NCBI RefSeq assembly: GCF_002257665.1
Contig: NZ_MQWB01000001.1
Span: forward strand, 793,896-857,895
Reading direction: 5' to 3'
Length of the DNA stretch: 64,000 bases
DNA from: Rubricoccus marinus
GTDB taxonomy: Bacteria; Bacteroidota; Rhodothermia; Rhodothermales; Rubricoccaceae
Below, in pieces: positions 1 to 64,000 of this stretch; the stretch's first letter is position 1; the number at the start of each line of letters is the position of its first letter. The translations under genes and the position numbers were made by a program. The notes beneath the pieces are model-generated. The model was not told the origin of the DNA and ran no database searches. It saw only the letters and a program-made list of their open reading frames with translations.

Positions 1-906
1 TCCAACTTCCGATCAGCACGCGTCGATGGCGATCAGACGGGTACCTACGGAAAGACCGAGCCTGCTACGGCCTCGTCGCTGCGGCTGGGGCTGGCGGTTG
101 CAGCGGATGGCGTCGAAACGCCGATGTCCGCAGCGTTCGTCGCGCCCACCGAAGGCGCCGCGCTCGGCGAGGACGACAGTGACGCCTACCGCCTGACGCC
201 CGGTGCCTGGCCCCGCGCGACCGTTTCCACGATGACGCTCGGCGCCGACCCCGTCCCGCTCGCCATCAACGCCCTCCCCGCCGACGCCTCTGGCGAGATC
301 ACGCTCCCCGTCGAGATTGCCGCCGAGGGCTACGCCGCGGGCGACCTGGAGGTGGTCCTCACCTGGACCGGCGCGCTTCCCGAAGGCTGGAGCGCCACGC
401 TCACGGACCGCCACACCGGCGAGCAGCACGTCATCGAACCCGGAGGCGAGGTCCGCCTCACGCTGGGCGTGCCATCGGCCGCCAAGTCTGCGGTCCGGCC
501 TCGCGGCCTGGGCCTTGACATGCTGCCCCCGCAGGCACGTTCTCTTGAGAAGGCGTCCAGCGGAGGCGCCATTTCCTCTGGCGACCGCCTCGCGCTGGTC
601 CTCACGCCCGCGAACGCCGTAAGCACGAGCGAGACGCCAGAGGCCTCTTTCGGCCTCGGCGCTCCGGCGCCGAACCCTGCCAGAGGCCTCGTACGGGTTC
701 CGTACACGCTCTCGGCCTCTGGCGAGGCGCGGGTCTCGGTCTACGACGCGCTGGGCCGCGAGGTCGCAACGTTGGCCTCTGGCGCCCACGCAGCTGGTGC
801 GCACACGGCGACGCTGGACGCGGGCGCGCTCGCGCCGGGCGTGTACGTGGTGCGTCTCTCGACGCCAGAGGCGGCCTCGGTGCAGCGCATCACTGTGGTG
901 CGGTAG
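1..906 (+). CDS. 3' part of a secreted protein with type IX-style C-terminal sorting domain (5' end outside window)
   Basis: The frame is open from the first base, so the start and any catalytic domain lie upstream of the window. The first ~210 visible residues match, in order, the region before the sorting domain of the subtilase at 1098-3851 (shared landmarks YGKTE, SAAFV, LGED, DAYRLTP, GALPEGW), so the two proteins are paralogous over their 3' halves. The last ~85 residues have the layout of the Bacteroidota type A sorting domain: GAPAPNPARG, LGREVATL, GVYVVRL and a terminal VVR. Proteins with this domain normally cross the inner membrane by Sec and the outer membrane by the type IX system; no T9SS component gene is in the window. 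Several in-frame decamers encode ASG or PEA. What the missing N-terminus does cannot be said. Confidence 0.85.
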   Translation, partial: SNFRSARVDGDQTGTYGKTEPATASSLRLGLAVAADGVETPMSAAFVAPTEGAALGEDDSDAYRLTPGAWPRATVSTMTLGADPVPLAINALPADASGEITLPVEIAAEGYAAGDLEVVLTWTGALPEGWSATLTDRHTGEQHVIEPGGEVRLTLGVPSAAKSAVRPRGLGLDMLPPQARSLEKASSGGAISSGDRLALVLTPANAVSTSETPEASFGLGAPAPNPARGLVRVPYTLSASGEARVSVYDALGREVATLASGAHAAGAHTATLDAGALAPGVYVVRLSTPEAASVQRITVVR

Positions 907-932
907 CGCCAGAGGCCCGGCCCTTCGGCTCG

Positions 933-966
933 CGCCCCGTCGGCTTCGGCTGGCGGGGCGTTTTCT
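933..966 (+). terminator. Rho-independent terminator after the first sorting-domain gene
   Basis: A 12-bp stem (CGCCCCGTCGGC paired with GCTGGCGGGGCG, two G-T wobbles) closes a TTCG tetraloop and is followed by TTTTCT. It lies about 25 bases after the stop at 906. Related hairpins recur at 3896-3924 and 6108-6139. Confidence 0.85.
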
Positions 967-1097
967 GTGGTGCCCGCGTCGGGGCGTAACAGGAATGATT
1001 GGTCCCCTTCGCCTGGGATTCACGGTGGGGCGCTCTCATTCCATCGCCGAGTCCTACTCTACCTGGGCTCTCACCTTGCGGACTCGTTCCCGGACCC

Positions 1098-3851
1098 ATG
1101 CCCCGATACCTCCTTGCGCCACTGGCGCTACTCTTCGCTTTCGCCGTCACGCCAGAGGCTCAGACAAATGTGGTTTCGGCAGAGATCGCCCAGGCATTTC
1201 AGGCCAGGGGCGAGGCTCGTGTGGTCATCATGTTGGAGTCGCCAGCCGTCAAGCGCGTTGACCTCACGGATCTTGCCGCCGTGAAGCGTGAGGTTGACGC
1301 CGTGCAAGAGAGCGTCCTCGCAACTCTCGGCGCCAGCAGCTATGTCACTCACCACCAGTACGAGACGGTCCCCGCGCTCGTGCTCACCCTGACCTCAAAG
1401 AAAGCCCTTGACCAGTTGCTGGCACACCCACACGTGCGCAAGGTCGACCTGGATGTGGGCGGTTCGGGAGGCCTTGACGACAGCGTCGCGCTCATCCGCG
1501 CCGACGAGCGCCAGACGAAGGGCAACAGCGGCAGTGGCATCGTCGTGGCGGTTATCGATAGTGGCATCGACACCGACCACGCGGACTTCTCAGGGCGCAT
1601 TGCGCACCAAGAGTGCTTTCTAGATACCGACGGCACCATCAACGGGGTGGGACAGTGCCCCGACGGCAGTGACCGGCAGACGGGTGCGGGTTCAGCCGAA
1701 GACGACCACGGTCACGGGACGCACGTGGCAGGTATCGTGGCCTCTGGCGGGACGGTTTCCTCTGTGGGCGTGGCTCCCGGAGCGGACATTGTGGCCATCA
1801 AGGTCCTCAACAGCAACAACAGCTTTTTCTACTTCTCCGAAATCGTGGCGGCTCTCGATTTTGTGAGCGCGAACCCAGCGCTGGGTGTTCAGGTCATCAA
1901 CATGAGCCTGGGAACGAACGCGCAGTACGCAGGCGATTGTGACGACGCAGCGGCCTTTACCATGGCAGGCGCAGCGGCCATCAACTCGCTCCGCGCCAAT
2001 GGCGTGATTGCGATGGCGAGTGCCGGAAACAATGGGTCCGGAACGACGATGGGAGCACCGGCCTGCATCAGCAACGTGATCTCGGTTGGGGCGACGGACG
2101 ACAACGACAGTGTCACCGGCTTCTCGCAGAGCAACTCGACGACCGATGTCTTTGCCCCGGGCAACGCCATCGTTGCTCCGTGGTTCGATGGTGCAACGGC
2201 GGTGCTCTCTGGTACCAGCATGGCAAGCCCGCACGTGGCGGGCTGCGCGGCTCTGCTTATCGAGTCTGGTGATGCCACGACGCCCGATGCCATTGAGGCT
2301 TTCCTTGAGGCCTCGCCGGTCCTCGTGACAGACGTTACCAATGGACTCTCTTTCCCCCGTCTGGACTGCGCGCCCACATTAACAGCCACGCTGACGGGCG
2401 TGCGCGATTACCGCGTGCTTGCGCTCCCCACCGGCGGCACCTACGACGACCTCCTCGGCCCGCTCTGGACGCAAGGTTTCCAGAACTCAGACGACGCCTC
2501 TGGCGGCTGTTCCGCCTACAGCTACGACGAGACCGCCGCGAGCTTCGAGGGCGGATATACGTGCCTCACCGACCAGGGCGCTACGTTCGCCAGAGGCCGC
2601 GGTGCCTACGTCTACGTTTATGCCGACGATGACCTCGACGCCTCTGGCGTGCAGGGCGGCTTCCCCAAAACGCTGAGCGTGCCCGATCCCGGGTTCACGA
2701 ATAGTGGCGCCCCGTTCACCTTTGCGCCGACGTACACCAACAACCTCGGCGTGCCCAGCTACCAGGAAGGTTGGAATCTCCTCGGTAACCCGCTCACGGC
2801 CGGCATGGACTGGGACGAGACGATCCGTGGCGGCGGTCTCACGCCGACGATCTACGTCCTCGACCCGAACTACTTCGGCGGCGACTACCGGACGTGGACG
2901 GCTGGAATTGGCGGGGACCTGCCCGGAGGCGTCGTTCCGGCGTTCCAGGGCTTTTTTGCCAAGGCCGTCGCTGCGTCTCCAACGCTGGAAGCGCCTCTGG
3001 CGTCGGTCGTGGACCCCGGGCCGGGTGTATACGGCAAGACGGAACGGACACCGCTGCGCCTAGAGCTCTCGACCGCTGCCGGTCCGGTTTCCGCCGCGTT
3101 CGTAGCCGTGGCGCCAGAGGCCGCGCTGGGTGAGGACGTACTAGACGCCTACCGTCTCACGCCAGCGGCCTACCCGCGCACGGTGCTCAGCACGAGCAGC
3201 ATCGGCGCAGAGCCCGTGCCTCTGGCGCTGAACGCGCTGCCGCAAGAGGCCTCTGGCGAGATGGAGGTTCCGCTGACGGTCGCCGCTGAAGGCCACACCG
3301 CCGGGCCTCTGGCGCTGAGCCTCGCGTGGAGCGGCGCGCTCCCCGAGGGGTGGACGGCCACGCTCGTGGACCGCACGCTCGGTACCGCGACGCCTCTGGC
3401 GGAGAGCGGTACCTACGCCTTCACGCTCGACGTGAGCGAGACCGCTAAGCGCTCCGCCGCACTCGGCCTCGACCTGATGTCGTTCACGGCGCCAGAGGCC
3501 AAGACCGGCGGCACGGCAGACTCCGGTGATCGCTTCGTGCTCCGCATCGCGCCCGCAAGCGCCGTGAGCACAGACGCGACGCCAGAGGCCGGGTTCGCGC
3601 TCGGTGCTCCGTCGCCCAACCCCGCGCGGGGCATGATCCGCGTGCCGTACGCGCTCGCGTCCTCTGGCGAGGCGGAGGTCTCAGTAGTGGACGCACTCGG
3701 CCGCGAGGTGGCCGTCCTGGCCTCTGGCGCGCACAGCGCGGGAAGCCACGAGGCGGCGCTGGACGCGAGCACACTCGCGCCGGGCGTGTACGTCGTGCGG
3801 CTGAGCACGCCGGAGGCGTCGGCCGTCCGCCGCGTCACCGTCGTGCGGTAA
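1098..3851 (+). CDS. Secreted subtilisin-like serine protease (S8) with C-terminal sorting domain
   Basis: The ATG at 1098 is preferred over one 99 bases upstream because it opens directly into a signal peptide (MPRYLLAPLALLFAFAVTPEA). Residues ~30-110 resemble an I9-type propeptide. The catalytic triad is visible: Asp154 in AVIDSGIDTDH, His206 in HGHGTHVAG and Ser374 in SGTSMASPH. Residues ~440-640 form a beta-rich region with no family I recognise, followed by the region shared with the gene at 1-906. The type A sorting domain ends the 917-residue protein (SPNPARGM, LGREVAVL, GVYVVRL, VVR). The expected job is an extracellular or surface-anchored protease. Fourteen or so decamers lie in frame, most in the 3' half, encoding PEA, PLA, ASG and once ARG; the catalytic core has few. 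Confidence 0.93.
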   Translation: MPRYLLAPLALLFAFAVTPEAQTNVVSAEIAQAFQARGEARVVIMLESPAVKRVDLTDLAAVKREVDAVQESVLATLGASSYVTHHQYETVPALVLTLTSKKALDQLLAHPHVRKVDLDVGGSGGLDDSVALIRADERQTKGNSGSGIVVAVIDSGIDTDHADFSGRIAHQECFLDTDGTINGVGQCPDGSDRQTGAGSAEDDHGHGTHVAGIVASGGTVSSVGVAPGADIVAIKVLNSNNSFFYFSEIVAALDFVSANPALGVQVINMSLGTNAQYAGDCDDAAAFTMAGAAAINSLRANGVIAMASAGNNGSGTTMGAPACISNVISVGATDDNDSVTGFSQSNSTTDVFAPGNAIVAPWFDGATAVLSGTSMASPHVAGCAALLIESGDATTPDAIEAFLEASPVLVTDVTNGLSFPRLDCAPTLTATLTGVRDYRVLALPTGGTYDDLLGPLWTQGFQNSDDASGGCSAYSYDETAASFEGGYTCLTDQGATFARGRGAYVYVYADDDLDASGVQGGFPKTLSVPDPGFTNSGAPFTFAPTYTNNLGVPSYQEGWNLLGNPLTAGMDWDETIRGGGLTPTIYVLDPNYFGGDYRTWTAGIGGDLPGGVVPAFQGFFAKAVAASPTLEAPLASVVDPGPGVYGKTERTPLRLELSTAAGPVSAAFVAVAPEAALGEDVLDAYRLTPAAYPRTVLSTSSIGAEPVPLALNALPQEASGEMEVPLTVAAEGHTAGPLALSLAWSGALPEGWTATLVDRTLGTATPLAESGTYAFTLDVSETAKRSAALGLDLMSFTAPEAKTGGTADSGDRFVLRIAPASAVSTDATPEAGFALGAPSPNPARGMIRVPYALASSGEAEVSVVDALGREVAVLASGAHSAGSHEAALDASTLAPGVYVVRLSTPEASAVRRVTVVR

Positions 3852-3895
3852 CCTGTTCGCCTGAGGTCCTGTCGTGGGAGCCTCTGACGATTCTC

Positions 3896-3924
3896 GCGCC
3901 CCGTCGGCTCTGCTGACGGGGCGC
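3896..3924. terminator. Hairpin between convergent subtilase and LuxR genes
   Basis: A 10-bp perfect stem GCGCCCCGTC / GACGGGGCGC with a 9-base loop; no T-tract follows, so termination strength is doubtful. It is flanked by a near-decamer (GCCTCTGACG at ~3880) and an inverted exact decamer (~3937). The block from ~3863 aligns with 6077-6139. Confidence 0.55.
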
Positions 3925-3947
3925 GCTGCGTTGGGCGCCAGAGGCCG

Positions 3948-5015
3948 CTACAACGGGCGGATCGCGCGGCCGACCTCGACGCGGGGGACGCCCAGCCGCT
4001 CCAGCACGGCCTCGACGTGGTGCCGCGCCGTGTGCACGCTAATGGCGAGCGCGGCGGCGATCTCGCGGTTGGTCCAGCGCTCCGCCAGCAGCACGGCGAC
4101 CTCGGCCTGGCGTGGCGTGAGGCCGAGGCGGGCGGCGGCCTCTGGCGCCAGAGGCCCGCTCCGGCGCTCGCGGCGCTCCGAGACCGCGACGACGCAGTAC
4201 GCGTCGCGCCCGTCGTGGACCTCGGTGGCCGAGAGGGCATATGTGGCCGCTGAGCCGTCGAGCGCGGCGCGCGGCGTGGGCGCCTCGCTCCAGAACGAGA
4301 GGGCGAGCCGGCTCGCGAGGGCGAGGAGCGCCTCGCGCTTGGGCTCGCGCGAGCACAAGGCGACAAGGCCCGGCGTGCGATGGACGATGCGGCCTGCGCG
4401 ATCGGCGACGAGGCAGGCGAGGCCAGTTGCGTCCAGCGTGGCGCAGAGGCGAGAGCGCGTGCTTCGCATCGCCGTGCACGCGTCGATCCCGGCCGTGAGC
4501 GCGGGGTAGAGAAGGTGTCCGAGTTGGCGCTGCTTCTCCGCGACCGACCGGCCGCGCTCGGTCACGCTGAGCGTGAGCTGAACCACGTCGGCGAGGGCGC
4601 GGGGGCGCGAGACGAGCGGGACGATAAACGAGAGGGCGTCGTACGAGCGGATCGAGGGGAGGAAGTCCTGCGTGTACGCGGTCCGCGCGAGGCGCTCGTA
4701 GGCGGGTCCGTAGATCTCGCGGCGGGTGCAGACGCCCAGGTGGAGGCCTCTGGCGAGAACGCCGCACCTCTCCAGAAGCGGGAAGAACTGCGCGTAGGCG
4801 GCCAACCGGCTGGGATCGACGCCGTCCGTGGACGCTTCCAGGCCCCGCTCGTCGGCCATGGTGAGCACACCGGAGCCCAGGCCCGTCGCGCTGCGCGCGT
4901 GCTCGGTGGCGAGGCCGCGCCACTCCTCTTCGGAGGCGCACGCCAGAGGCGAGGCGAGAACGCGGATGGCGTCGGCCACGCGGCGCTGCTCGGCGGAGGT
5001 GAGAGAAAGAGCCAC
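3948..5015 (-). CDS. LuxR-family transcriptional regulator with N-terminal sensor-like region
   Basis: The last ~60 residues are a LuxR/GerE helix-turn-helix: LTPRQAEVAVLL, then NREIAAALAISVHTARHH and VEAVLERLGV. The preceding ~290 residues show no receiver-domain aspartate pattern; part (CLVADRAGRIVHRTPG) resembles a PAS-like strand-turn-strand, so it is not an obvious two-component response regulator. I chose a GTG start at 5015, 11 bases after the stop of the hydrolase gene; the frame stays open further upstream but would overlap that gene. The arrangement suggests a hydrolase-regulator operon. The target genes and signal are unknown. Confidence 0.75.
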   Translation of the reverse strand: MALSLTSAEQRRVADAIRVLASPLACASEEEWRGLATEHARSATGLGSGVLTMADERGLEASTDGVDPSRLAAYAQFFPLLERCGVLARGLHLGVCTRREIYGPAYERLARTAYTQDFLPSIRSYDALSFIVPLVSRPRALADVVQLTLSVTERGRSVAEKQRQLGHLLYPALTAGIDACTAMRSTRSRLCATLDATGLACLVADRAGRIVHRTPGLVALCSREPKREALLALASRLALSFWSEAPTPRAALDGSAATYALSATEVHDGRDAYCVVAVSERRERRSGPLAPEAAARLGLTPRQAEVAVLLAERWTNREIAAALAISVHTARHHVEAVLERLGVPRVEVGRAIRPL

Positions 5016-27614: not shown

Positions 27615-28820
27615 TCAGGCGGCCGTGTTTTGCCTCTGGCGGTAGGCCGAGGGCGTCAGGCCGGTGAGCCGCTTGAACGCCGCATTGAACGACGACTTCG
27701 CGTTGAACCCTGCCTCCATCCCGATCGCTAAGACCGTCAGGTGGGCGCAGGCCGGGTCCACGAGCCGCTCTTGTACCTCGCGCACGCGGTACCCGTTGAC
27801 GAAGTCGTAGTAGCTCTGCCCGAGGTGCGTGTTGAGCACCTCGGTGAGGTTGTGCGGCGTGATGCCGAGAGCGTCAGCGAGGTCTGACAGCGTGAGGTCG
27901 CCACGCCGGTAGATGTGCTCGGTTTCCATGAGCGCGAGCAGCCGCTCGCGGTGCCGTGCCGCTTCCTCCGGCCGCATCCCGGAGCGCGCGTACGCAGGCT
28001 CTGACGGGGCCTCTGGCGCAGGTGAAGCCTCATGGTCCTGTACCGTCGCGCCAGAGGCCGGATCGGGAGCGAAGAGGCTCGGGTGGCGCAGGCCGAAGTA
28101 GCCGAGCGCGTACACGAAGACCGTCACGCTGAGAAGGGTGAGATCGTCGTAGATGGCGCTCGGGTCCATCCCCAGCGTCGGCACGTGGTCTCGGACGCCG
28201 GCGGCGTAGAGCACGGTGACGACTGTGAGCAGAGCGAGCACGCTGACGGCGAGCGCGCGAAGCCAGCGGAGCGAAACCGAATCGACGGGCGCCTCCTGGT
28301 CGCGCACCCGGGCGCGGTGCCGCCGAAGCAGCGCCACCACGAGGGCGATGTAGACGAAGCCGTGGACGAGCTTCAGGGGGTTGATGATGGTCAACGCCCC
28401 GGTCTGGAACGACGCTCCGGGGTCGTTTAGCAGCGCCAGCTTCTCCGTGCCGGGCAGAAGGTAGTAGGGGACGAGGAACAGCGACAGCAGCACGAACGGC
28501 GCCAGATGCCACAGGTCGGTCCGCTTCATCTCCGGGCGCTCGGCTGTGAACGTGCGGACGTAGAGATAGAACAGCGGGCCGTACAGAAACCCGATCGGCA
28601 GGTCCAGACCGATGAGGGCCGGAACGACCGCGCTCGCGTCCGTGGCGTGGTACACCGCCATCGCGAGGTCGATCGAGAACACGAGCACGACTGCGGCGAG
28701 CAGCCGGTTGGGTAGCGCGTTGCGGTGCCGGCTCGCGAGCACGGCGGCGAGGAACAGCCCCTGGGTGGCTCCCAGCAGGTAGATCACTGCCATCGCGTTG
28801 CTGAAGCTCGGGCCGTCCAT
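27615..28820 (-). CDS. AraC-family regulator with N-terminal multi-helix membrane domain
   Basis: Residues ~8-235 contain about seven hydrophobic helices (AVIYLLGATQGLFLAAVLAS first, LLSVTVFVYALGYFGLRH last). The C-terminal ~110 residues are an AraC double helix-turn-helix: TLSDLADALGITPHNLTEVLN and AIGMEAGFNAKSSFNAAFKRLTG, ending TPSAYRQR. Such membrane-bound AraC proteins are common in Bacteroidota. Its gene precedes the TonB receptor gene by 107 bases on the same strand, so that gene is the obvious candidate target. Decamers code PEA/ASG only in the linker between the two domains. Confidence 0.9.
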   Translation of the reverse strand: MDGPSFSNAMAVIYLLGATQGLFLAAVLASRHRNALPNRLLAAVVLVFSIDLAMAVYHATDASAVVPALIGLDLPIGFLYGPLFYLYVRTFTAERPEMKRTDLWHLAPFVLLSLFLVPYYLLPGTEKLALLNDPGASFQTGALTIINPLKLVHGFVYIALVVALLRRHRARVRDQEAPVDSVSLRWLRALAVSVLALLTVVTVLYAAGVRDHVPTLGMDPSAIYDDLTLLSVTVFVYALGYFGLRHPSLFAPDPASGATVQDHEASPAPEAPSEPAYARSGMRPEEAARHRERLLALMETEHIYRRGDLTLSDLADALGITPHNLTEVLNTHLGQSYYDFVNGYRVREVQERLVDPACAHLTVLAIGMEAGFNAKSSFNAAFKRLTGLTPSAYRQRQNTAA

Positions 28821-28884
28821 CCGAAGGGGGCTGGTGTAGGGCCCAAGGTATCGGTCTCCAGAGACATCCCGTGCCTCGGGTGCG

Positions 28885-28902
28885 CCTCTGGCGCCAGAGG
28901 CG
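28885..28902. repeat. 18-bp tail-to-tail decamer palindrome
   Basis: GCCTCTGGCGCCAGAGGC in the 105-base gap between mgsA/rarA and the AraC gene, both on the minus strand. A head-to-head pair (28934-28951) follows only 31 bases away, inside the 3' end of mgsA, where it encodes PEASGE. Confidence 0.75.
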
Positions 28903-28925
28903 CGTCGGCAGCGCGCGCGTGCGGC

Positions 28926-30362
28926 TCAGCTCTCGCCAGAGGCCTCTGGCGCCTCGCTCTCGCCAGAGGTTTCGGTTCCCGTCGCCTGTGGCGCGTCTTC
29001 CTCCGCGTAGCGCCGCACGCGCTTCTCGATGGACTCCGCTTCGTCGCGCGCGCGCAACTGCTCCAGGCGCACCCGCAAGCGGCCCTCGTAGCCCTGGTCG
29101 GAGGGCTCGTAGAAATACGTGCCCTGCATCCCGCCCGGGAGGTACTGCTCCGGCACGTAGTGGTCCTGATAGGCGTGGGGGTACTTGTAGCCTTTGCCGT
29201 GGCCCAGGCCCTTTTTGTCTCGCGAGCCGTCCTTGAGGGCGTTCGGCGGGTCCTCGGTCCGCTCCTTTTCCACGTGCGCGAGAGCGGAGAAAAACGCGAA
29301 TCCGCTGTTGCTCTTCGGCGCCGTCGCGAGGTAGAGGCAGCACTCGGCGAGCATGAAGCGGCCCTCGGGCATCCCCACGCGGTCGAACGCCTCGGCGCAG
29401 GCGACGGCCATGCGCATCGCGTTGGGGTCGGCCATGCCGATGTCCTCGCCGGCGAAGATCAGCATCCGGCGGAAGACGAAGCGCGGGTCCTCGCCGGCGT
29501 AGATCATCTTCGCCATCCAGTACAGCGCCGCGTCGGGGTCCGACCCGCGCATGCTCTTGATAAACGCGCTGATGGTGTCGTAGTGCGCGTCGCCGTCCTT
29601 GTCGTACAGCACGGCGCGCTTCTGGATCGATTCCTCGGCCTCCAGCAGGCCGATCTCGATGGCGCCAGAGGCCGCGGGGGGCGTCGTCTCGACGGCCAAC
29701 TCTAGCGCGCCGAGGATGGAGCGCGCATCGCCGTTGGAGGTGCTGACCAGGTGCGCCATCGCCTCTGGCGCGAGGACGACGTTTTGGCGGCCGTAGCCAC
29801 GGTCGGGGTCGCCCAGCGCCTGGCGCGCGATCTGCTCCAGGTCGGCCTCCGTCAGCGGCTGGAGCTCAAAGATGCGCGAGCGTGAAACGAGCGCCTTGTT
29901 GACCTCGAAGTACGGGTTCTCGGTCGTCGCGCCGACAAACGTGACGGTCCCGTTCTCGACGTGCGGGAGCAGCGCGTCCTGCTGGGACTTGTTGAAGCGG
30001 TGCACCTCGTCCACGAACAGGATCGTGCCCTGACCGTGGTGCTTGAGCCTCTGGCGCGCGGCGTCGATCTGCGCCCGAATGTCGGCCACGCCTGCGAGGA
30101 CGGCGTTGAGGCTCGCGAAGTGCTTGCTCGTCGTGTTCGCGATGATCCTCGCGAGCGTGGTCTTGCCGGTTCCGGGCGGGCCGAACAGGATGAGGCTCGT
30201 CACGCGGTCGGCCTCGACAGCGCGGCGGAGCAGCTTGCCCTGTGCGAGGAGGTGGCCCTGGCCCGCGAACTCGTCCAGCGTGCGGGGGCGCATGCGGTCC
30301 GCCAGAGGCGCGGAGCGTTGGCGGCGAGCGGTGGCGGCGGCGTCGAAAAGGTCGTCGGGCAT
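28926..30362 (-). CDS. rarA: Replication-associated recombination protein A (AAA+ ATPase MgsA/RarA)
   Basis: Walker A FGPPGTGKTT, Walker B ILFVDEVHRF, sensor GATTENP and the C-terminal tetramerisation region (DPDAALYWMAKMIYAGEDPRF, GMPEGRFMLAECCLYLA, YKYPHAY) are all present. The family acts at stalled replication forks. I take the ATG at 30362 (MPDDLFDAAATARRQ); the frame remains open upstream without family similarity. Length 478 residues, about 30 more than E. coli. The extra C-terminal tail (PQATGTETSGESEAPEASGES) is low-complexity and largely decamer-derived. Confidence 0.95.
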   Translation of the reverse strand: MPDDLFDAAATARRQRSAPLADRMRPRTLDEFAGQGHLLAQGKLLRRAVEADRVTSLILFGPPGTGKTTLARIIANTTSKHFASLNAVLAGVADIRAQIDAARQRLKHHGQGTILFVDEVHRFNKSQQDALLPHVENGTVTFVGATTENPYFEVNKALVSRSRIFELQPLTEADLEQIARQALGDPDRGYGRQNVVLAPEAMAHLVSTSNGDARSILGALELAVETTPPAASGAIEIGLLEAEESIQKRAVLYDKDGDAHYDTISAFIKSMRGSDPDAALYWMAKMIYAGEDPRFVFRRMLIFAGEDIGMADPNAMRMAVACAEAFDRVGMPEGRFMLAECCLYLATAPKSNSGFAFFSALAHVEKERTEDPPNALKDGSRDKKGLGHGKGYKYPHAYQDHYVPEQYLPGGMQGTYFYEPSDQGYEGRLRVRLEQLRARDEAESIEKRVRRYAEEDAPQATGTETSGESEAPEASGES

Positions 30363-30447
30363 GGCGCAAGATGCCGACCTGAGCGGGCGTTGGCGCAAGA
30401 GGCCCGCAGCGTTCTGCGTGAAGCCTCGGGCGCTAGTCCCGCTGGTC

Positions 30448-30723
30448 CTAGCCTCGGGCGAGGAGGTCCTGCGTCTCGGGGTGGCTCTCCATGTACGACT
30501 CGACAAACGGGCACTCGGGAAGCACCTTGAGGTCGTTCTCGCGCGCGTGCTGGAGCCCGGCCTCAACCAGCTGGCTGCCGATGTCCTGCCCGCGGTCGGG
30601 CTCGGGGACGCGCGTGTGGACAAACGCGATGGTGCCGCCGCCGGCCCGGTACCCGAGTTCGGCGGTGCCGTGCTCGGTATCGGCAGTAAAGCGGTTGTGG
30701 GCGGAGTCGTGTTGGACAGTCAT
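30448..30723 (-). CDS. Small GNAT-type N-acetyltransferase (COG2388-like)
   Basis: A 91-residue protein with the short GCN5-related fold of the YidJ/COG2388 group: ELGYRAGGGTIAFVHTRVP, RGQDIGSQLVEAGL and LPECPFVESYMESHPE. The conserved Cys/Pro stretch LPECPFV is the family hallmark. The ATG at 30723 (MTVQHDS) is preferred over one nine codons upstream. The biochemical substrate of this group is not established. It is 85 bases upstream of rarA and on the same strand. Confidence 0.85.
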   Translation of the reverse strand: MTVQHDSAHNRFTADTEHGTAELGYRAGGGTIAFVHTRVPEPDRGQDIGSQLVEAGLQHARENDLKVLPECPFVESYMESHPETQDLLARG

Positions 30724-43156: not shown

Positions 43157-43385
43157 CCTTCGCTTGGCGACCGCTCGCCAGAGGCCGCGTTGCGCTCGCC
43201 GTGCGAGGCGGACCGTTCAGGCTCTGAAACGGCTGTCAGGATGCGCAGTCTGACCGTTGGCGGGCCGAGAGTGGCTGAGCGGCTAGAGGGTGTGTTACCA
43301 TTAGGAGACTTCACAGACAGTCCCTACCCCGAGGCTTCTCGGTGCTGCCTGTGAGTTCGATTTCCCTACCACCGCATCGGTACCC

Positions 43386-46300
43386 ATGCGAATCTCTATA
43401 CCCTCACGGGCGTGGTCATCCCTGACGAAGTCCCTTGGGCTCTTTGGGATCCTCCTCGCCTGTCTCGCGGCGAATCCCGCGCACGCACAGCAGACCGGGC
43501 TCATCTCCGGTCAGATCCTCGACGCCGAGTCCGGCGACCCCGTCATCGGCGCAACCGTCCGCATCGCAGCGCTCAACCGCGGCGCTGCGGCGGACGTTGA
43601 TGGCAACTATTCCTTTGCTGTCCCAGCAGGTGCTTACGACCTCGTTGCGAGCTCCGTCGGGTACGTCACCATCGAGCGCCGCGTGACGGTTGCCGCAGGG
43701 CAGACGGTTACGCTGAACCTCGCGCTCCAACCAGACCTGGACCTGCTGGACGAGATCGTCGTGACCGGAGCTCTCTCCGAGCGCTCGATCGGACGCTCGG
43801 AGGTTGCCGTGTCCCGCGTGGACGTGGAGGCCCTTACGGAGCAGAACGAGTACCAAGACGTCTCGCAGCTCTTGAACGGCAAGGTGGCCGGTGTCAACGT
43901 GCAGCCCTCCTCGGGCAACGTCGGCGGTGGTATCCGCTTCAACGTCCGCTCCGGTGGTGGTCTCAACGGTAGCGGCCAGCCGCTCATCTTCGTGGACGGC
44001 GTCCGCATCGATGACTCGCAGGTCACCGGCTTCGGCGTGGGCGGTCAGGGCACGAGCGCCCTTGCCGACATCAACCCCAACGACATCGAGTCCATCGACG
44101 TGTTGAAGGGTCCGGCGGCTGCAGCGCTGTACGGAACCGATGCCTCGAACGGCGTGGTCATCATCACCACGAAGTCCGGCAAGATCGCGGGCTCCGGTGC
44201 GGCTCCGTTCAACATCACGCTCCGCTCCACCGTTGGCGAGAACAGCCAGCAGACGGAGTACACCGCTGACAACGCCTTCCAGACCTTCGAGGACGCAAAC
44301 CGCATCTTCCAGGACGGCGCGATCTACGAGAACGGCGTCAGCATCTCCGGTGGCTCCCAGACGGTCCGCTACTTCGGCCAGTACAACCGCCGCGACGAAG
44401 AGGGCATCGTGCCCAACAACATCTTCGACCGCACCTCGCTCCGCGCCAACTTCGACGCGTTCCCCTCTGACAAGCTTCAGCTGGGCGTCAACTTTGGCTT
44501 TACGCAGAGCGCCACGAGCCGTCCGCAGAACGACAACAACGTGATCGGCTTCCTTGGCAACACGCTGTTGCGCCCGGCCTCGTACCTCTTCACGGACTCC
44601 ATCGCGGTCAACGCGGCGGAGAACACCCAGCGCAGCAACCGCTTCCTCGGTTCCGTTGAGGCGTCGTACTCCCCGTTCAAGGCGCTCACCTTCCGCGGCA
44701 ACGTCGGCCTCGATGCGTCGGACCTCCGCCAGGACGACTCCGCGCCTCCGGGGCTCGCTTACCCGGGCGTGGGTACGCGCGGCTCCCGTGGCATCTACAA
44801 CCGCGAGCGGGATCAGGTCTCGTTCGCCGCAAGCGGCCGCTACCAGTTCAACGCCACGGAAGAGCTGAACCTTCAGACTTCGATTGGCTTGCAGGGCTAT
44901 GACGCACGCACGCGCTCGTTCAACCTGCAGAACTTTACCTTCGCGACGGACCTGATCACCGACATCGGGACGGGTACGGAGTACCAGGCCTCTGGCGAGT
45001 TCCAGTCCGGCGAGCGTCAGCTCGGCCTCCTCGCAGACCAGTCCATCTCCTACGGCAACCTGTTCAACGGCTCCTTCGGGTTCCGTCAGGACTACGCCAC
45101 CGCGATCGGTGGAGAGACGCCCAGCATCTTCTACCCGTTCGCTCGTGGCGCCGTCCGCCTCGACGCTCTCGATGCTACGCCTAGCTTCTTCAGCCTCCTG
45201 AAGCTCCGCGCGGCGTACGGCCAGAGCGGTCAGCTTCCGGGCACGCTCAACGCGCAGCGCCTCCTCTACGGTGCCGCCGTCGGTGGCTTCGGCTCTGGAG
45301 CCGTTCCTGCCGTTATCGGCAACCCGGACATCAAGCCGGAGCGCGTGAGCGAGTTCGAAACGGGTCTCGACCTCGAACTCGGCAACCGCCTGACGGCAGA
45401 GTTCACGTACTACATCCAGCGCGTTACCGACTCAATCGTGGGTGTGAACCAGGCGCCGTCTACGGGCCAGGTCGCATCGCTCGTGCCGCTCAACGTGGGA
45501 CGCGTCGACGGGCAGGGCATCGAGTTGGGCCTCCGCGGCACCGTCCTCGATATGGCCGCAGCGTCGCTCGAACTCGGCGCGGTCCTGAGCTACCAGACCA
45601 ACGAGGTCAAGGAGCTTGGCATCAACCCGTTCACGCTCAACCCGAACGCCCCGCTGTACGACGGCTTCGACGTCAACGTGATTCGTCCGGGCACGTGCGC
45701 GTACCAGACGGATGTCCCCGACGATTACAGCCCGCGTCAGACCGCGGAAGACTGCCCGACGTTCATCACGGACGGCTTGCCGCGCTCCGGATTCTACACG
45801 ACGCCCGTCAACGGCGCTCTGTTCAACGACGCCGGCGCCTACATCGGCGTCGACGCAGGCATCAACGAGGACAACGTCGACCTCTACATGGATCGCCTGG
45901 AGTCCGGCGAGTGCGAGTACAACCCGACCAGCGGTGACTCTCGCTGCTTCTACGGCACGCCGTACCCCGAGTACAACGGCTCGTTCACGGCGAACATCTC
46001 GCTGTTCCGGGACTTCCGCGTCTACGCCCTCTTCGACTGGGCTGTGGGCCTCAAGGTGCTGAACAACACGCGCAACTTCCAGCTTGCCTTCGGCAACGAC
46101 CGTGAGCGCGCGGAGCTCGCCGACCAGCTCGGCATCGGCTCCACCGATGACTTCCCGAACCTGACGCCAGGTACGCAGGAGTACACCGACGCCGCGAACG
46201 CATACGCTCGCACCAGCCGGAACTTCGACGCCAACCTGATCGAGGACGCGGACTACATCAAGTTCCGCGAGCTCAGCATCAGCTACGACCTCGCAGGCCT

Positions 46301-46499
46301 CTTGCGCCGCGTGCCGCAGTCCCCCGTTCGGACCGCGCAGTTCACGATTGCTGGCCGCAACCTGTTCACCTCAACGCCCTACAGCGGTGTGGACCCCGAG
46401 GTCAACTTCGCCGGCGCACGTAGCCTCTCGCAGGGCCAGGACTTCCTGACGCTGCAGAACCCCCGTGTGATCTACGCCACGCTCACGGTTGGCATCTGA
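43386..46499 (+). CDS. SusC/RagA-family TonB-linked outer-membrane protein
   Basis: Signal peptide (~1-34, ending NPAHAQ), CarboxypepD_reg domain at ~38-120 (ISGQILDAESGDPVIGATV), plug with the SusC hallmark SGGGLNGSGQPLIFVDGVRI and LKGPAAAALYGTDASNGVVIITTKSG, then a ~750-residue barrel ending NPRVIYATLTVGI. With the SusD-like lipoprotein it should form a pedal-bin importer for a glycan or peptide. Codon use differs from its neighbours (more GGT, CGT and TCC, hardly any AGA/AGG), and the 3.1-kb gene has one exact decamer (~44988). Strong codon bias suggests high expression. No glycosidase or regulator gene sits nearby to name the substrate. Confidence 0.96.
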   Translation: MRISIPSRAWSSLTKSLGLFGILLACLAANPAHAQQTGLISGQILDAESGDPVIGATVRIAALNRGAAADVDGNYSFAVPAGAYDLVASSVGYVTIERRVTVAAGQTVTLNLALQPDLDLLDEIVVTGALSERSIGRSEVAVSRVDVEALTEQNEYQDVSQLLNGKVAGVNVQPSSGNVGGGIRFNVRSGGGLNGSGQPLIFVDGVRIDDSQVTGFGVGGQGTSALADINPNDIESIDVLKGPAAAALYGTDASNGVVIITTKSGKIAGSGAAPFNITLRSTVGENSQQTEYTADNAFQTFEDANRIFQDGAIYENGVSISGGSQTVRYFGQYNRRDEEGIVPNNIFDRTSLRANFDAFPSDKLQLGVNFGFTQSATSRPQNDNNVIGFLGNTLLRPASYLFTDSIAVNAAENTQRSNRFLGSVEASYSPFKALTFRGNVGLDASDLRQDDSAPPGLAYPGVGTRGSRGIYNRERDQVSFAASGRYQFNATEELNLQTSIGLQGYDARTRSFNLQNFTFATDLITDIGTGTEYQASGEFQSGERQLGLLADQSISYGNLFNGSFGFRQDYATAIGGETPSIFYPFARGAVRLDALDATPSFFSLLKLRAAYGQSGQLPGTLNAQRLLYGAAVGGFGSGAVPAVIGNPDIKPERVSEFETGLDLELGNRLTAEFTYYIQRVTDSIVGVNQAPSTGQVASLVPLNVGRVDGQGIELGLRGTVLDMAAASLELGAVLSYQTNEVKELGINPFTLNPNAPLYDGFDVNVIRPGTCAYQTDVPDDYSPRQTAEDCPTFITDGLPRSGFYTTPVNGALFNDAGAYIGVDAGINEDNVDLYMDRLESGECEYNPTSGDSRCFYGTPYPEYNGSFTANISLFRDFRVYALFDWAVGLKVLNNTRNFQLAFGNDRERAELADQLGIGSTDDFPNLTPGTQEYTDAANAYARTSRNFDANLIEDADYIKFRELSISYDLAGLLRRVPQSPVRTAQFTIAGRNLFTSTPYSGVDPEVNFAGARSLSQGQDFLTLQNPRVIYATLTVGI

Positions 46500-46508
46500 T
46501 GCCCTCCC

Positions 46509-46542
46509 TCGGCCCGCAGCACGAGGCTGTGTTGCGGGCCGA
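46509..46542 (+). promoter_or_regulatory. Intercistronic stem-loop between susC and susD
   Basis: TCGGCCCGCA and TGCGGGCCGA form a perfect 10-bp stem with a 14-base loop, nine bases after the susC stop. No T-tract follows, so it is more likely a stability or partial-attenuation element setting the SusC:SusD ratio than a full terminator. Confidence 0.6.
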
Positions 46543-46577
46543 CTCCGTGACTTCGCGTGACCAGATCCCAAACTTCC

Positions 46578-47756
46578 ATGTATAAGAACATCCTTCTTGC
46601 CGCTCTGATTACAGGAGCCGGCTCTCTCACAGCCTGCGACTCGTTTGTCAACGACGTCAACGGCCCGGTGGACTTGGTGCCATCGGATTCTCTCGACAAC
46701 CCCGCCAACCTGGATTTCGTCATCACGGGGGTCCAGCAGCGATTTGCAACGACGCACGGAACTGCGGTCCTTCTCGCCGACGGCCTGAGCGACGCGTACC
46801 TGTTCGCAGACGGAACGACCGGCGCGACCTTCCCGACCTACATCGAGATCGATGACGGGGAGATCACGTTGGACAACAACTCCGTTGACGGCCTCTACAC
46901 CAACGTCAACGAGCTCCGCTTCCTCGCGGACGACCTCCTTGCCCGCGTTACGGATCGGGTGGAGTTCCGCGATGGAGACGAGGATCTGCGCGACCGTGCG
47001 TTCTTTACCGCGTACTTCTACGGAGGCGTGGCGCGGTACTACCTCGCGACGTACTTCGGTCTCGAAGAGCGTCTTGGAGGCGGCACCATCGATGCCGGTC
47101 CGTTCATCCCCTCGGCCGAGCTGTACGCTCAGGCAATCGAGCGGATGACCTCCGCGCTCGACTACGTCGACGCGGGCTCTCGCGAGGCGAAGATCGTGAA
47201 CTCGTCGATCGCACGTGTGCACCTGTACAATGGCAACCTCGACGCCGCGGCTACCTTCGCGGCAAACGGGCTGGCACCGGGTGACGCTCCGTTCGTGGCG
47301 CAGTACAACGCGCAGTCCAACAACCCCGTCTGGATCGGCGCTGGCCGTGGTCGTACGCAGTTCGCTGCAGACGCGCGCTTCGGCGATGATGGCGATGACC
47401 TCACGCCAACGGAGCCGTACGAGCTGGACTTCATCCGCCAGGCGGTCTACCTCCTCGACTCGGATCCCATTCCGTTCATCTCCGCAGAGGAGACGAGCCT
47501 GATCCGTGCCGAGGCCGCTCTCGACGACGGTGACGATGACGGCGCTCTCGCCTTTATCAACGAGGCCCGTGGCGACCGCGATGATCTCGACTCCGTAGAT
47601 CTGGACGTCCTCATCGAGCAGCGCGATCAGATCCTGTTCACCCAGGGCGCTCGCCTCGTGGACCAGCGTCGGTTCGACCGCTGGCACCTGGGACCGAACA
47701 CCTGGCAGTACCTGCCGATCACGCAGACGGAACGGAACTCCAACCCGAACCTGTAA
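46578..47756 (+). CDS. SusD/RagB-family lipoprotein
   Basis: Lipoprotein signal MYKNILLAALITGAGSLTAC (lipobox LTAC); the ATG at 46578 is chosen for this. The body is helical with TPR-like pairs and the family endings SAEETSLIRAEAAL, ALAFINEARGDR, LIEQRDQILFTQGARLVDQRRF and WHLGPNTWQYLPITQTERNSNPN. At 392 residues it is shorter than classical SusD (about 500), like the smaller SusD-like proteins of Rhodothermota. It forms the surface lid of the SusC importer. I find no decamer in the gene. Confidence 0.93.
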   Translation: MYKNILLAALITGAGSLTACDSFVNDVNGPVDLVPSDSLDNPANLDFVITGVQQRFATTHGTAVLLADGLSDAYLFADGTTGATFPTYIEIDDGEITLDNNSVDGLYTNVNELRFLADDLLARVTDRVEFRDGDEDLRDRAFFTAYFYGGVARYYLATYFGLEERLGGGTIDAGPFIPSAELYAQAIERMTSALDYVDAGSREAKIVNSSIARVHLYNGNLDAAATFAANGLAPGDAPFVAQYNAQSNNPVWIGAGRGRTQFAADARFGDDGDDLTPTEPYELDFIRQAVYLLDSDPIPFISAEETSLIRAEAALDDGDDDGALAFINEARGDRDDLDSVDLDVLIEQRDQILFTQGARLVDQRRFDRWHLGPNTWQYLPITQTERNSNPNL

Positions 47757-47777
47757 GCGAGATCCCGATGGACAAGT

Positions 47778-47812
47778 AGAAGCCCGGAGTGCTCTCAGCG
47801 CTCCGGGCTTCT
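47778..47812 (+). terminator. Terminator hairpin after susD
   Basis: AGAAGCCCGGAG and CTCCGGGCTTCT form a perfect 12-bp stem with an 11-base loop; only CGTATG follows, so the T-tract is weak. It is the clearest non-decamer hairpin at a convergent junction in the window and closes the susCD operon. Confidence 0.75.
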
Positions 47813-47867
47813 CGTATGCGGTGACGACGGTGAAGCGCTGACCCGGATAGGCTGCTCCGCGCTACGG

Positions 47868-48596
47868 CTACCGTGCCCGCGTCCAAACGAGAATGGCGCC
47901 GCACTGCGTTTGGTTGATGTCAGCCGAGAACTCAGCAGGGACTTCAGCGGGGCCTTTGTAGATCTCGACAGCGAGCACGCCGTCCAGCGGGACCGTGTCC
48001 AGTTGCATCGCGAGGCCTCTGGCGGCGACGCCGTCGAAAAAGACGGCGGGGGAGCAGTCTCGGCGGCGGGTAGAGGTGATGCGGGTCTGGCCGAACTGGG
48101 ACTCGATGCGCAAACCGGTCACCCCTCGGAATATGTCGGAGAAGCGGATGGCGCCCGCTTCTTCGAGTTCCTCGATCGTCTTGAAGGTGCCGCTGCGCGT
48201 ATCGCGGCGTTCGTAGAAGCCAGAGCGTTGGAGGCGCGCGGCGTTGAACTTGTCGGCCTCCACGTTGATGGCGTCCAGCGCCACGGCCTCTGGCGGCAGC
48301 AGGAACGTGACCCGGGAAGAGCGAGAAAGTACGAGGGTGGTGTCCGTCGCCGTGTAGCCAAGAAAGGCCGCAGCGATCTCCTGCTCCCCGGGTGCGAGGT
48401 CGCTGAAAAGGGCCCGCCCGTCGACGTTCGTCGTCCTCAGCTCGTTGCCGACGGCAACGTTAGCCCCTGCCAGAGGCGCTTGGGTGTCGGCATCGCGGAC
48501 AACGATGAGGAGGCGAAGCGCGGGTGTCGTCGGCTCCTGAGCCGCGAGATCGGCCGGAAGCAGGGAAAACGCGCAGAGAGCGAGGAGGAAACGCAT
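47868..48596 (-). CDS. Carboxypeptidase-like regulatory plus TonB-plug-only protein
   Basis: Signal peptide (MRFLLALCAFSLLPADLAAQ), CarboxypepD_reg domain (RLLIVVRDADTQAPLAGANVAVG ... AAFLGYTATDTTLVL) and a plug-like end (IEELEEAGAIRFSDIFRGVTGLRI, CSPAVFFDGVA, VEIYKGPAEVPAEF). The 242-residue protein stops after the plug (CGAILVWTRAR) with no beta-barrel. Similar barrel-less proteins are known in Gemmatimonadota and Rhodothermota with unknown roles; it is complete rather than obviously truncated. It may act in the periplasm on TonB systems. It is convergent with susD. Confidence 0.83.
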   Translation of the reverse strand: MRFLLALCAFSLLPADLAAQEPTTPALRLLIVVRDADTQAPLAGANVAVGNELRTTNVDGRALFSDLAPGEQEIAAAFLGYTATDTTLVLSRSSRVTFLLPPEAVALDAINVEADKFNAARLQRSGFYERRDTRSGTFKTIEELEEAGAIRFSDIFRGVTGLRIESQFGQTRITSTRRRDCSPAVFFDGVAARGLAMQLDTVPLDGVLAVEIYKGPAEVPAEFSADINQTQCGAILVWTRAR

Positions 48597-62946: not shown

Positions 62947-62964
62947 GCCTCTGGCGCCAGAGGC
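62947..62964 (+). repeat. 18-bp decamer palindrome between lipoprotein and pdxA genes
   Basis: GCCTCTGGCGCCAGAGGC followed by TTTGTA, nine bases after the lipoprotein stop and 17 before the pdxA start; a plausible weak terminator. Confidence 0.7.
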
Positions 62965-62981
62965 TTTGTAGAGGCACGTCT

Positions 62982-63977
62982 ATGCGTCCCACGCTCGCGC
63001 TCACGCTTGGAGATCCCAACGGGATCGGCCCCGAGATCGTCCTGAAGGCCGCGCGAGACGCCGGCCTCGCGCCTCTGGCGCGGCTCGTGGCCGTCGGTCC
63101 CGCGAACGTGTTGGAGGCGCAGGCGGACGCGCTCGGGCTAGGACCCATCACGCGGCTGGATGGCTTTGCGGACGTAGCACCAGAAGGCACGCTCGGCGTG
63201 ATCGACACGGGGGACGCCGAGACCGAGTGGGGCCGCACGACGGCCTCTGGCGGCCGCGCCGCCATCGACGCGGTCGCGCGGGCGTGCGACGCGTGCCTCT
63301 CGGGTGAGGCCGACGGCATGGTCACGGCACCACTCTCCAAAGAGGCGATCTCGCTGGCGGGCGTCTCGTTTCCCGGTCACACAGAGTACCTCCAAGACCG
63401 GACCGGCGCCCCAGACGTGGTGATGGTGCTGGCCTCGAACCTCGCCAGAGGCGCACTCCGCGTGGCGCTCACCACCGTTCACGAACCCATCGCGCGCGTG
63501 GCCGCCCTCGTCACGCAGGAGCGGATCGGGACCGTGCTGAACACGCTCGACGCCGGGCTGCGCCAGAGGCTCGGCGTGCCGGAGCCACGCATCGCGGTTC
63601 TCGGCCTCAACCCTCACGCGAGTGATGGCGGCGTGATCGGCGCGGAAGATCTCACGGTCGTAGCCCCGGCGGTGGAGGCAGCGCGGGCGCGCGGCGTCAA
63701 CGCCAGCGGCCCGTTTCCGGCCGACGCGTTTTTCGGTCGCGGCTCGTGGTCACGAGTGGACGCAGTCCTCGCGATGTACCACGACCAGGGCCTCGCGCCG
63801 TTCAAAGCGCTCGCGATGGGCGGCGGTGTGAATCTCACGCTCGGGCTCCCCATCGTGCGCACGAGCCCGGACCACGGTACGGCCTTCGACATCGCGGGCC
63901 GTGGCATCGCGGACGCCTCCAGCTTTGCCGAGGCGGTGCGGATGGCGGCCGAGATGGCTGTAATGCGTAATGCGTAA
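62982..63977 (+). CDS. pdxA: 4-hydroxythreonine-4-phosphate dehydrogenase
   Basis: NAD-dependent step of DXP-dependent pyridoxal phosphate synthesis. MRPTLALTLGDPNGIGPEIVLKA, the metal-binding PGHTEYLQD-type FPGHTEYLQDRTG, GLNPHASDGG and AMYHDQGLAPFKALAMGGGVNLTLGLPIVRTSPDHGTAFDIAG are present. Length 331 residues, as in E. coli. The last codons (GTA ATG CGT AAT GCG TAA) are supplied by the GCGTAAT array that begins at ~63960, so the gene ends VMRNA; the array has replaced or reached the natural 3' end. Confidence 0.95.
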   Translation: MRPTLALTLGDPNGIGPEIVLKAARDAGLAPLARLVAVGPANVLEAQADALGLGPITRLDGFADVAPEGTLGVIDTGDAETEWGRTTASGGRAAIDAVARACDACLSGEADGMVTAPLSKEAISLAGVSFPGHTEYLQDRTGAPDVVMVLASNLARGALRVALTTVHEPIARVAALVTQERIGTVLNTLDAGLRQRLGVPEPRIAVLGLNPHASDGGVIGAEDLTVVAPAVEAARARGVNASGPFPADAFFGRGSWSRVDAVLAMYHDQGLAPFKALAMGGGVNLTLGLPIVRTSPDHGTAFDIAGRGIADASSFAEAVRMAAEMAVMRNA

Positions 63978-64000
63978 TGCGTAATGCGTAATGCGTAATG
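63960..64000. repeat. GCGTAAT heptamer tandem array at the end of pdxA, running off the window
   Basis: Five full copies of the heptamer (read here as GTAATGC) and a sixth cut by the window edge. The first copies are inside pdxA and include its stop codon. Same unit as 59191-59239, 4.7 kb away. Confidence 0.9.

What the first reader, a model, noticed from the sequence alone, without database searches (positions are those of the whole stretch)
1..64000. A decamer, GCCTCTGGCG / CGCCAGAGGC, saturates the whole window
Seen: I count 21 exact copies in bases 1-4000 (about one per 190 bp), and similar density through most of the rest, in both orientations, inside and outside genes. Composition alone (two A/T and eight G/C bases at ~68% G+C) predicts about 0.6 copies on both strands of 64 kb, so the excess is several hundredfold. 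The core is a broken palindrome, GCC-TCT-GGC, so it keeps an orientation. Known parallels are HIP1 (GCGATCGC) in cyanobacteria, and the uptake sequences of Neisseria and Haemophilus, but the sequence differs and the density exceeds typical uptake sequences. It may be a methylation, uptake, repair, recombination or chromosome-structure signal. I know of no description.
Basis: partly seen in the sequence, partly recalled or inferred. Interest (0 to 1): 0.93.

Follow-up and report, generated by a model that had tools for sequence, protein, structure and literature searches.

The report
Genome-saturating decamer, likely DNA uptake tag
One ten-letter DNA word recurs 14,176 times in this bacterium's genome, and related species carry different words with the same placement pattern; it is likely a "self" tag for taking up DNA of the same kind, which would put such tags in an order of bacteria where our literature searches found none described.

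Summary
GCCTCTGGCG occurs 239 times in the window (shuffles: 0.59) and 14,176 times in the 4.43-Mb genome, 7,049 and 7,127 per strand; the reversed word occurs 61 times. The organism is a Rhodothermales bacterium (best named matches). No other of 113 genomes of the order has more than 99 copies. But relatives carry their own words: GCTGGCGG in G001 and G007, CCGAGGCGG in G004, G006 and G008. Where sampled, these words are about 2 to 4.5 times denser outside genes and favour inverted neighbours within 60 bp, and pile up after stop codons; control words in G000 do not. Coding copies arose by substitution in place (146 of 162 sites ungapped against G001). Two contigs with conjugation genes are nearly free of the word. 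ComEC is in 9 of 9 family genomes. The pattern matches Neisseriaceae uptake sequences and their dialects (PMC3630211) better than HIP1, Chi or KOPS. Best reading: an uptake-sequence system spread by transformation. Uptake is untested; the congener shows no pilus-ATPase match, and methylases are only partly excluded.

The parts
1..64000 (.). 239 exact copies of GCCTCTGGCG / CGCCAGAGGC, mean spacing 266 bp
3112..3945 (.). example of a dense cluster: nine copies in 834 bp, both orientations
   Evidence: position list
4138..4155 (.). overlapping inverted pair (offset 8); one of 19 neighbouring offset-8 pairs in the window (12 '+-', 7 '-+')
28884..28951 (.). two overlapping inverted pairs of opposite type: 28884-28901 ('+-') between the minus-strand genes 27615-28820 and 28926-30623, and 28934-28951 ('-+') just inside the 3' end of the latter
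43186..48014 (.). motif-poor stretch (one copy, at 44988) over a TonB-receptor-like gene (43386-46499) and its neighbour (46557-47756); G+C 0.64 against 0.69 for the window; possibly a recent import (inferred)

Best explanation
GCCTCTGGCG is likely a DNA uptake sequence: a tag that the cell's transformation machinery is predicted to prefer when it takes up free DNA, so that DNA of its own kind would be imported and recombined more often. Shown: 14,176 copies, balanced on the strands, changed in place by substitution, densest where protein constraint is absent, nearly absent from two contigs that carry conjugation genes, and replaced in relatives by other words (GCTGGCGG, CCGAGGCGG) with the same placement. 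Inferred: fragments that carry the word are taken up preferentially and recombine into the chromosome, so each mutation towards the word is copied at the expense of the old allele (molecular drive), and it accumulates wherever the protein sequence tolerates it. Inferred: a receptor, perhaps a minor pilin, reads the GGCG-containing core; shifts in its specificity would produce the dialects. Inferred: the excess of inverted neighbours has two sources, use of pairs as hairpins at gene ends and an advantage of carrying both orientations on one short fragment.
For: Abundance and sharpness; 2,939 perfect and 1,248 one-mismatch copies (background about 331) in 804 kb (sums of the table). Dialects: GCTGGCGG 8,020 and 7,454 copies in G001 and G007 (reversed controls 1,599 and 2,023); CCGAGGCGG 4,084, 3,300 and 2,523 in G004, G006, G008 (controls 459, 241, 304). 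On a ComEC tree G004, G006 and G008 form one clade with G007 beside it, and G000 and G001 are sisters, so two switches from an ancestral GCTGGCGG suffice. Seven of 157 G000 sites lie on a G001 GCTGGCGG site in exact register (0.17 expected per offset). Placement, between against inside genes per kb: 8.66/2.81 in G000, 3.82/1.96 in G001, 4.27/2.18 in G007, 3.07/0.69 in G004, 2.18/0.67 in G006. First 20 bp after stops in G000: 28.9/kb (32.2 with another edge rule), while five control words stay at 0.1-0.4/kb there. Inverted neighbours within 60 bp, opposite:same 397:188, 51:5, 16:7, 22:1, 13:1 (G000, G001, G007, G004, G006); inside G000 genes 179 of 226 pairs, shuffle mean 112.9, maximum 131 of 500. 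Substitution in place. Contigs C14 and C15 0.33 and 0.09/kb against 3.7/kb on the chromosome; VirB11-type T2SSE on both, VirB4 and VirB8 on C15. ComEC 9 of 9; a T2SSF-T2SSE (PilC-PilB-like) gene pair in G000.
Against: No uptake or binding data. G001 has a dialect but no match to T2SSE or T2SSF, though it is a 91%-complete, 300-contig assembly; G008 also has no T2SSF match. No prepilin-like gene was found by a regular expression in the sampled fifth of the chromosome plus three plasmid-like contigs, and no receptor is identified. 8.7 copies per kb between genes is more than one tag per fragment would need. Hairpins at gene ends have only a weak T excess downstream (about 0.19 over ten bases, 0.11 behind pairs in genes). 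Motif-poor contigs may simply be recent arrivals. The two GCTGGCGG genomes are also the two with full-length PF02384 methylases.
Confidence: 0.58

Rival explanations
1. A HIP1-like word: a methyltransferase plus a methylation-dependent repair process converts near-matches into the word, with no role in uptake.
For: HIP1 in cyanobacteria is likewise super-abundant and is replaced in some strains by other words with matching methyltransferases (abstract and section 2.2 of PMC4390886). G000 carries one Type ISP-like adenine methyltransferase on contig C15. G001 and G007, which share GCTGGCGG, are the two genomes with full-length PF02384 matches (best 4.2e-66 and 7.6e-94), while G006 and G008 have none and G004 a partial one.
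Against: HIPs are palindromes; these words are not. PF01555 has no match in G000, G001 or G007; PF02384 in G000 matches only on C15, itself nearly motif-free. G004, G006 and G008 share CCGAGGCGG but no common PF01555 or PF02384 gene: G006 alone has a PF01555 match over the cut-off, G008 one below it. Vsr matches only in G004 and G005. Such a process should act on resident plasmids too.
Confidence: 0.18
2. Selected function at each site: the copies are binding sites or hairpins (transcription terminators, nucleoid organisers) kept by selection.
For: Piling within 20 bp of stop codons, highest density between convergent genes (13.5/kb), overlapping inverted pairs.
Against: Two thirds of copies (1,951 of 2,939) are inside genes, in all six frames; T-tracts are weak; almost the whole set turned over between congeners, which site-by-site selection would hardly allow. 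DUS show the same secondary use (passages of PMC3630211).
Confidence: 0.12
3. A purely mutational spread: template switching between nearby inverted copies writes new copies, without uptake.
For: Excess of inverted neighbours up to 300 bp inside genes; several bases changed per site (mean 3.9 of 10 against G001).
Against: Does not explain why one word is favoured, why it is rarer in genes, or why C14 and C15 lack it; 134 of 146 ungapped sites have no G001 GCTGGCGG site within 6 bp. Purging of direct repeats could cause part of the same asymmetry, but inside genes opposite pairs (179) exceed, and same pairs (47) fall below, the roughly 115 expected of each from density alone (my arithmetic; edges ignored).
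Confidence: 0.08
4. An assembly or base-calling artefact.
For: None found; considered because the word is absent from the congener.
Against: Long open frames run through the copies; separate assemblies of relatives show their own words with the same placement.
Confidence: 0.01

Closest known systems
DNA uptake sequences (DUS) and their dialects, Neisseriaceae (PMC3630211, abstract and passages seen)
   Same: overrepresented 10-12-mers, about 940 to 3,600 copies per genome in the passages seen, dialects congruent with phylogeny, permissive intergenic regions, inverted pairs in high numbers in all dialect genomes and tied to terminators
   Different: other phylum, unrelated sequence, about 14,000 copies, a GGCG-containing core, inverted preference also strong inside genes up to 300 bp, no receptor known, function untested
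Uptake signal sequences (USS), Pasteurellaceae (PMC2346458, abstract and passages seen)
   Same: hundreds to thousands of copies, one orientation commoner in the reading frame, inverted forms between genes
   Different: sequence, phylum, density; the bias to gene termini reported there is weak here (intragenic deciles)
HIP1 and alternate HIPs, cyanobacteria (PMC4390886: abstract, section 2.2, passages)
   Same: extreme over-representation (300-2,700 per Mb in most cyanobacteria there, about 3,200 per Mb here), replacement by other words in some relatives
   Different: palindromic octamers tied to methyltransferases; here non-palindromic, with no methylase found on the G000 chromosome in the two families searched
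Chi and KOPS (recalled; Chi named in a passage of PMC4390886)
   Same: short, frequent, oriented words
   Different: no strand polarity here

Membership tests
DNA uptake sequence (DUS/USS) | Short non-palindromic word in hundreds to thousands of exact copies, both strands | tested here: met
   14,176 copies, 7,049/7,127
DNA uptake sequence (DUS/USS) | Enriched in permissive, non-coding DNA | tested here: met
   8.66 against 2.81 per kb; gene calls are my own and unvalidated
DNA uptake sequence (DUS/USS) | Inverted pairs at gene ends acting as terminators | tested here: inconclusive
   pairs and stop-codon piling met; T-tracts weak
DNA uptake sequence (DUS/USS) | Related species carry the same word or dialects of it | tested here: met
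   three words in 6 of 9 family genomes, consistent with a ComEC tree; G002 and G005 show no marked excess of any of the three, G003 a threefold excess of CCGAGGCGG over its control (338 against 111) at low density
DNA uptake sequence (DUS/USS) | Atypical (here: low) density in conjugative elements | tested here: met
   C14 0.33/kb, C15 0.09/kb, chromosome 3.7/kb; conjugative nature predicted from VirB genes, best supported for C15
DNA uptake sequence (DUS/USS) | Natural-transformation machinery encoded | tested here: inconclusive
   ComEC 9 of 9; T2SSE 8 of 9 and T2SSF 7 of 9, both missing in G001
DNA uptake sequence (DUS/USS) | The word raises DNA uptake or transformation; a receptor binds it | not testable with these tools
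   needs an experiment; no receptor found
HIP (highly iterated palindrome) | Palindromic word | tested here: not met
   GCCTCTGGCG, GCTGGCGG and CCGAGGCGG are not palindromes (sequence)
HIP (highly iterated palindrome) | Methyltransferase specific for the word | tested here: inconclusive
   G000: PF01555 none, PF02384 only on contig C15; G001 and G007 have full-length PF02384; PF00145, PF02086 and PF07669 not searched
HIP (highly iterated palindrome) | One-base deviations biased to first and last base | tested here: not met
   totals by position 1-10: 251, 44, 118, 361, 32, 107, 237, 21, 33, 44 (sums of the table): first base high, last base low, fourth highest
Chi / KOPS | Orientation follows the replichore | tested here: not met
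   balanced genome-wide and in seven spaced stretches

The most novel reading that the evidence does not exclude
A third, independently evolved uptake-sequence lineage, in Rhodothermales, with at least three dialects and two switches inside one family, denser than any uptake sequence I saw in print (3.7 per kb of chromosome, 8.7 per kb between genes), and with a placement rule I did not see described: neighbours within about 300 bp, even inside genes, prefer opposite orientation, as if the receptor reads direction on short fragments.
Probability: 0.48. Interest if true: 0.88.

Novelty: new variant of a known kind. Interest (0 to 1): 0.8.

Why it matters
[quoted passage not shown] In Bacteroidota, Riemerella columbina is reported to prefer its own DNA, but the top decamers I saw for two Riemerella species were A-rich and their role was left open (passages of PMC7965970). 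An independent case in another branch, with dialect switches between close relatives, would let one ask how a receptor and 14,000 genomic sites change together, whether drive alone explains accumulation, and how strongly it can bend proteins: 258 of 388 AGA codons (66.5%) and 636 of 1,277 TCT codons (49.8%) in the sampled genes lie inside the word. It would also give a marker of recently imported DNA in these genomes.

Tried and rejected
Chance or composition: rejected. Artefact: rejected. Insertion of a 10-bp unit: rejected for most coding copies; 146 of 162 sites align to G001 without a gap, though gaps are commoner at motif sites (16 of 162) than at random ones (36 of 1,860), so motif sites lie in variable places or a minority arose by insertion. 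Replication polarity: rejected. Plain codon preference as the cause of GCTGGCGG: rejected because in G001 it is denser outside genes and favours inverted pairs, while the two control words there do not. Viral copies: one 18-base double motif has no match in viral contigs. Print: the word itself is in 27 papers; the 15 listed titles concern unrelated subjects and I opened none; searches for uptake sequences with Bacteroidetes (none), with Bacteroidota, Rhodothermota or Flavobacteria (15 of 1,048 titles seen) and for the suspected family (10 of 10 titles seen) showed no description. A ComEC tree was first built from wrong frames and redone.

Full report
OBSERVATION. The decamer is present as described: 239 exact copies in the window against 0.59 in shuffles, 122 and 117 on the two strands, mean spacing 266 bp. 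The window is G000:C1:793896-857895 of a 4.43-Mb assembly in 15 contigs; the assembly has 7,049 + 7,127 copies, while the word read backwards has 61. The word is sharp: in 804 kb of chromosome (the window, bases 1-600,000 of C1 and seven spaced 20-kb stretches) there are 2,939 perfect copies and 1,248 with one mismatch, for which a background model gives about 331 (sums of the table).

ORGANISM. With a RarA-like protein of the window the best named matches are Rhodothermales: an uncultured Rhodothermaceae bacterium, a Rhodothermus-labelled MAG, Salinibacter altiplanensis and others. I suspect the family Rubricoccaceae from recalled G+C content; that was not tested.

DISTRIBUTION. Among 39 relatives and then 113 other genomes of the order (the sets overlap) none has more than 99 copies; the one congener, G001, has 99 against 101 for the control. 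A few genomes exceed their control at low counts, such as G010 with 25 against 3. K-mer enrichment in sampled DNA of relatives showed other words: GCTGGCGG in G001 and G007, CCGAGGCGG in G004 and G006. Whole-genome counts: GCTGGCGG 8,020 in G001 (control 1,599), 7,454 in G007 (2,023), 1,111 in G000 (1,125), 2,656 in G004 (2,044), 1,924 in G006 (2,116); CCGAGGCGG 4,084 in G004 (459), 3,300 in G006 (241), 2,523 in G008 (304), 491 in G000 (308), 633 in G001 (442), 494 in G007 (327). The reversed-word control is imperfect: several other genomes of the order show ratios of 3 to 5 for CCGAGGCGG at low density. What sets G004, G006 and G008 apart is higher absolute density and, for G004 and G006, the placement described next; G008 was too thinly sampled for placement. 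In the comEC loci alone (3.5-3.8 kb) the counts of the three words are 16/2/0 in G000, 0/9/0 in G001, 0/11/0 in G007, 0/5/3 in G004, 0/1/2 in G006 and 0/2/4 in G008.

PLACEMENT. With my own codon-based gene calls (unvalidated; missed small genes count as intergenic) the densities between and inside genes are 8.66 and 2.81 per kb in G000, 3.82 and 1.96 in G001, 4.27 and 2.18 in G007, 3.07 and 0.69 in G004, 2.18 and 0.67 in G006. Control words are equal or rarer between genes in G000, G001, G004 and G006; in G007 two are slightly denser there on three copies each. Inside G000 genes all six frames are used, led by Ala-Ser-Gly (649) and Pro-Glu (496). In sampled genes 258 of 388 AGA and 636 of 1,277 TCT codons lie inside the word. 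Copies pile up after stop codons in G000: 28.9 per kb in the first 20 bp (32.2 with another edge rule), falling to 5-15 further on, while five control words show 0.1-0.4 per kb in that bin. G001, G004 and G006 words also peak there, at 11.2, 12.3 and 10.1 per kb (no control words were run for these three). Exact peaks lie on the last base of the stop and just after it.

INVERTED NEIGHBOURS. Pairs closer than 60 bp are mostly opposite: 397 against 188 in G000, 51:5 in G001, 16:7 in G007, 22:1 in G004, 13:1 in G006, whereas the control word CGAGCGCG has 18 opposite and 40 same in G000. Overlapping pairs at offset 8 are common in G000 (164 and 113). With those removed, 179 of 226 close pairs inside single genes are opposite; 500 orientation shuffles give a mean of 112.9 and a maximum of 131, and the excess persists to 300 bp (448 of 739, maximum 406) but not to 1,000 (993 of 1,962). 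Between genes it is 117 of 166 below 60 bp (maximum 104) and within the shuffles beyond. At gene ends such pairs could form hairpins, but the T excess behind them is weak, so classical terminators are at most part of the story.

ORIGIN OF COPIES. Sixty-two G001 orthologues (at least 50% identity; weaker and overlapping hits, and genes with masked bases, dropped) cover 162 motif sites: 146 ungapped, differing from the word in 3.9 of 10 bases on average, against 2.3 for random decamers. G007, G004 and G006 give the same picture with 47, 81 and 95 ungapped sites. In G001 the two T positions are G or C in 93 and 96 of 146 sites. Twelve of 146 sites have a G001 GCTGGCGG site within 6 bp against 55 of 1,824 random ones (Fisher P 0.003); seven of 157 lie in the register that shares CTGGCG, against 0.17 expected per offset. 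Shared protein sequence adds to this, so it is suggestive only. Most sites are new. Density against protein conservation is not monotonic for G001 (2.97, 3.33, 2.32 per kb by identity third) and falls for G007 (3.15, 2.03, 1.65).

REPLICONS. Chromosome samples carry 3.05 to 3.95 copies per kb with balanced strands. Contigs C14 (90 kb) and C15 (65 kb) have 0.33 and 0.09 per kb; each has a VirB11-type T2SSE protein, and C15 also VirB4 and VirB8 families and a ParA-like protein, so they look like conjugative plasmids, C15 more surely. C10 (139 kb) is patchy at 0.63 per kb. Neisserial conjugative elements have been recognised by atypical DUS distributions (abstract of PMC7371117).

MACHINERY. ComEC: 9 of 9 family genomes. 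T2SSE: 8 of 9, T2SSF: 7 of 9; G001 lacks both and G008 lacks T2SSF. G000 has an adjacent T2SSF-T2SSE gene pair on the chromosome, a second T2SSE-like gene in a cluster whose other members had no informative Pfam match, and T2SSE and T2SSF matches on contig C11 (not fetched). No prepilin was found in the sampled part. Methylases: PF01555 none in G000, G001, G004, G007; PF02384 in G000 only the Type ISP-like enzyme on C15, but full-length matches in G001 and G007, the two genomes that share GCTGGCGG, which counts for the methylation rival; Vsr only in G004 and G005.

DIALECT HISTORY. A ComEC tree gives (G000,G001), (G007,(G006,(G004,G008))) and (G003,(G002,G005)); one gene, midpoint rooting. GCTGGCGG as the older word and two replacements fit it.

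COMPARISON. In Neisseriaceae, overrepresented 10-mers were found as dialects with about 940 to 3,600 copies in the passages I saw, inverted pairs in all dialect genomes and permissive intergenic regions (PMC3630211). Accumulation by point mutation under biased uptake, in non-coding and unconstrained coding DNA, is a published drive model (passages of PMC1939737). HIP1 shares abundance but is palindromic and methylase-linked. The step that defines uptake sequences, preferential uptake, is untested here, so I say it works like one and do not claim proof of membership.

Noticed in passing
L028:14540-18172 (G000 contig C15): A 1,210-aa Type ISP-like adenine methyltransferase on a plasmid-like contig, the only PF02384 match in the genome.
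   Followed up: partly
window 43186-48014: Motif desert over a TonB-receptor-like gene and its neighbour with lower G+C; several of the largest motif gaps elsewhere lie over genes that look secreted or outer-membrane by eye, often with lower G+C, perhaps recent imports.
   Followed up: partly
L025 and L149-L154 (G000 contig C10): A 139-kb contig with patchy motif density (blocks near 2 per kb beside empty blocks) and a strand bias of 57 to 31, with a UmuC-like gene and, by eye, ParA-like and efflux-pump-like genes.
   Followed up: partly
L029 and L031 (G001): Inverted GCTGGCGG pairs at spacing 27 ('+-', 8 cases) enclose CCGAG/CTCGG-like letters in all 4 of the 4 examples printed, as if part of a larger hairpin element.
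   Followed up: no
L076:1-21359: The named Rhodothermales locus from OX638293 has strongly enriched octamers TTGACCAA (28 against 0.7) and CCCCGTCA (35 against 1.5), perhaps a local repeat array.
   Followed up: no
G007 loci L063-L065: Decamer AAGCGGGGAA, 10 copies in 60 kb with almost none expected, perhaps a local repeat array.
   Followed up: no
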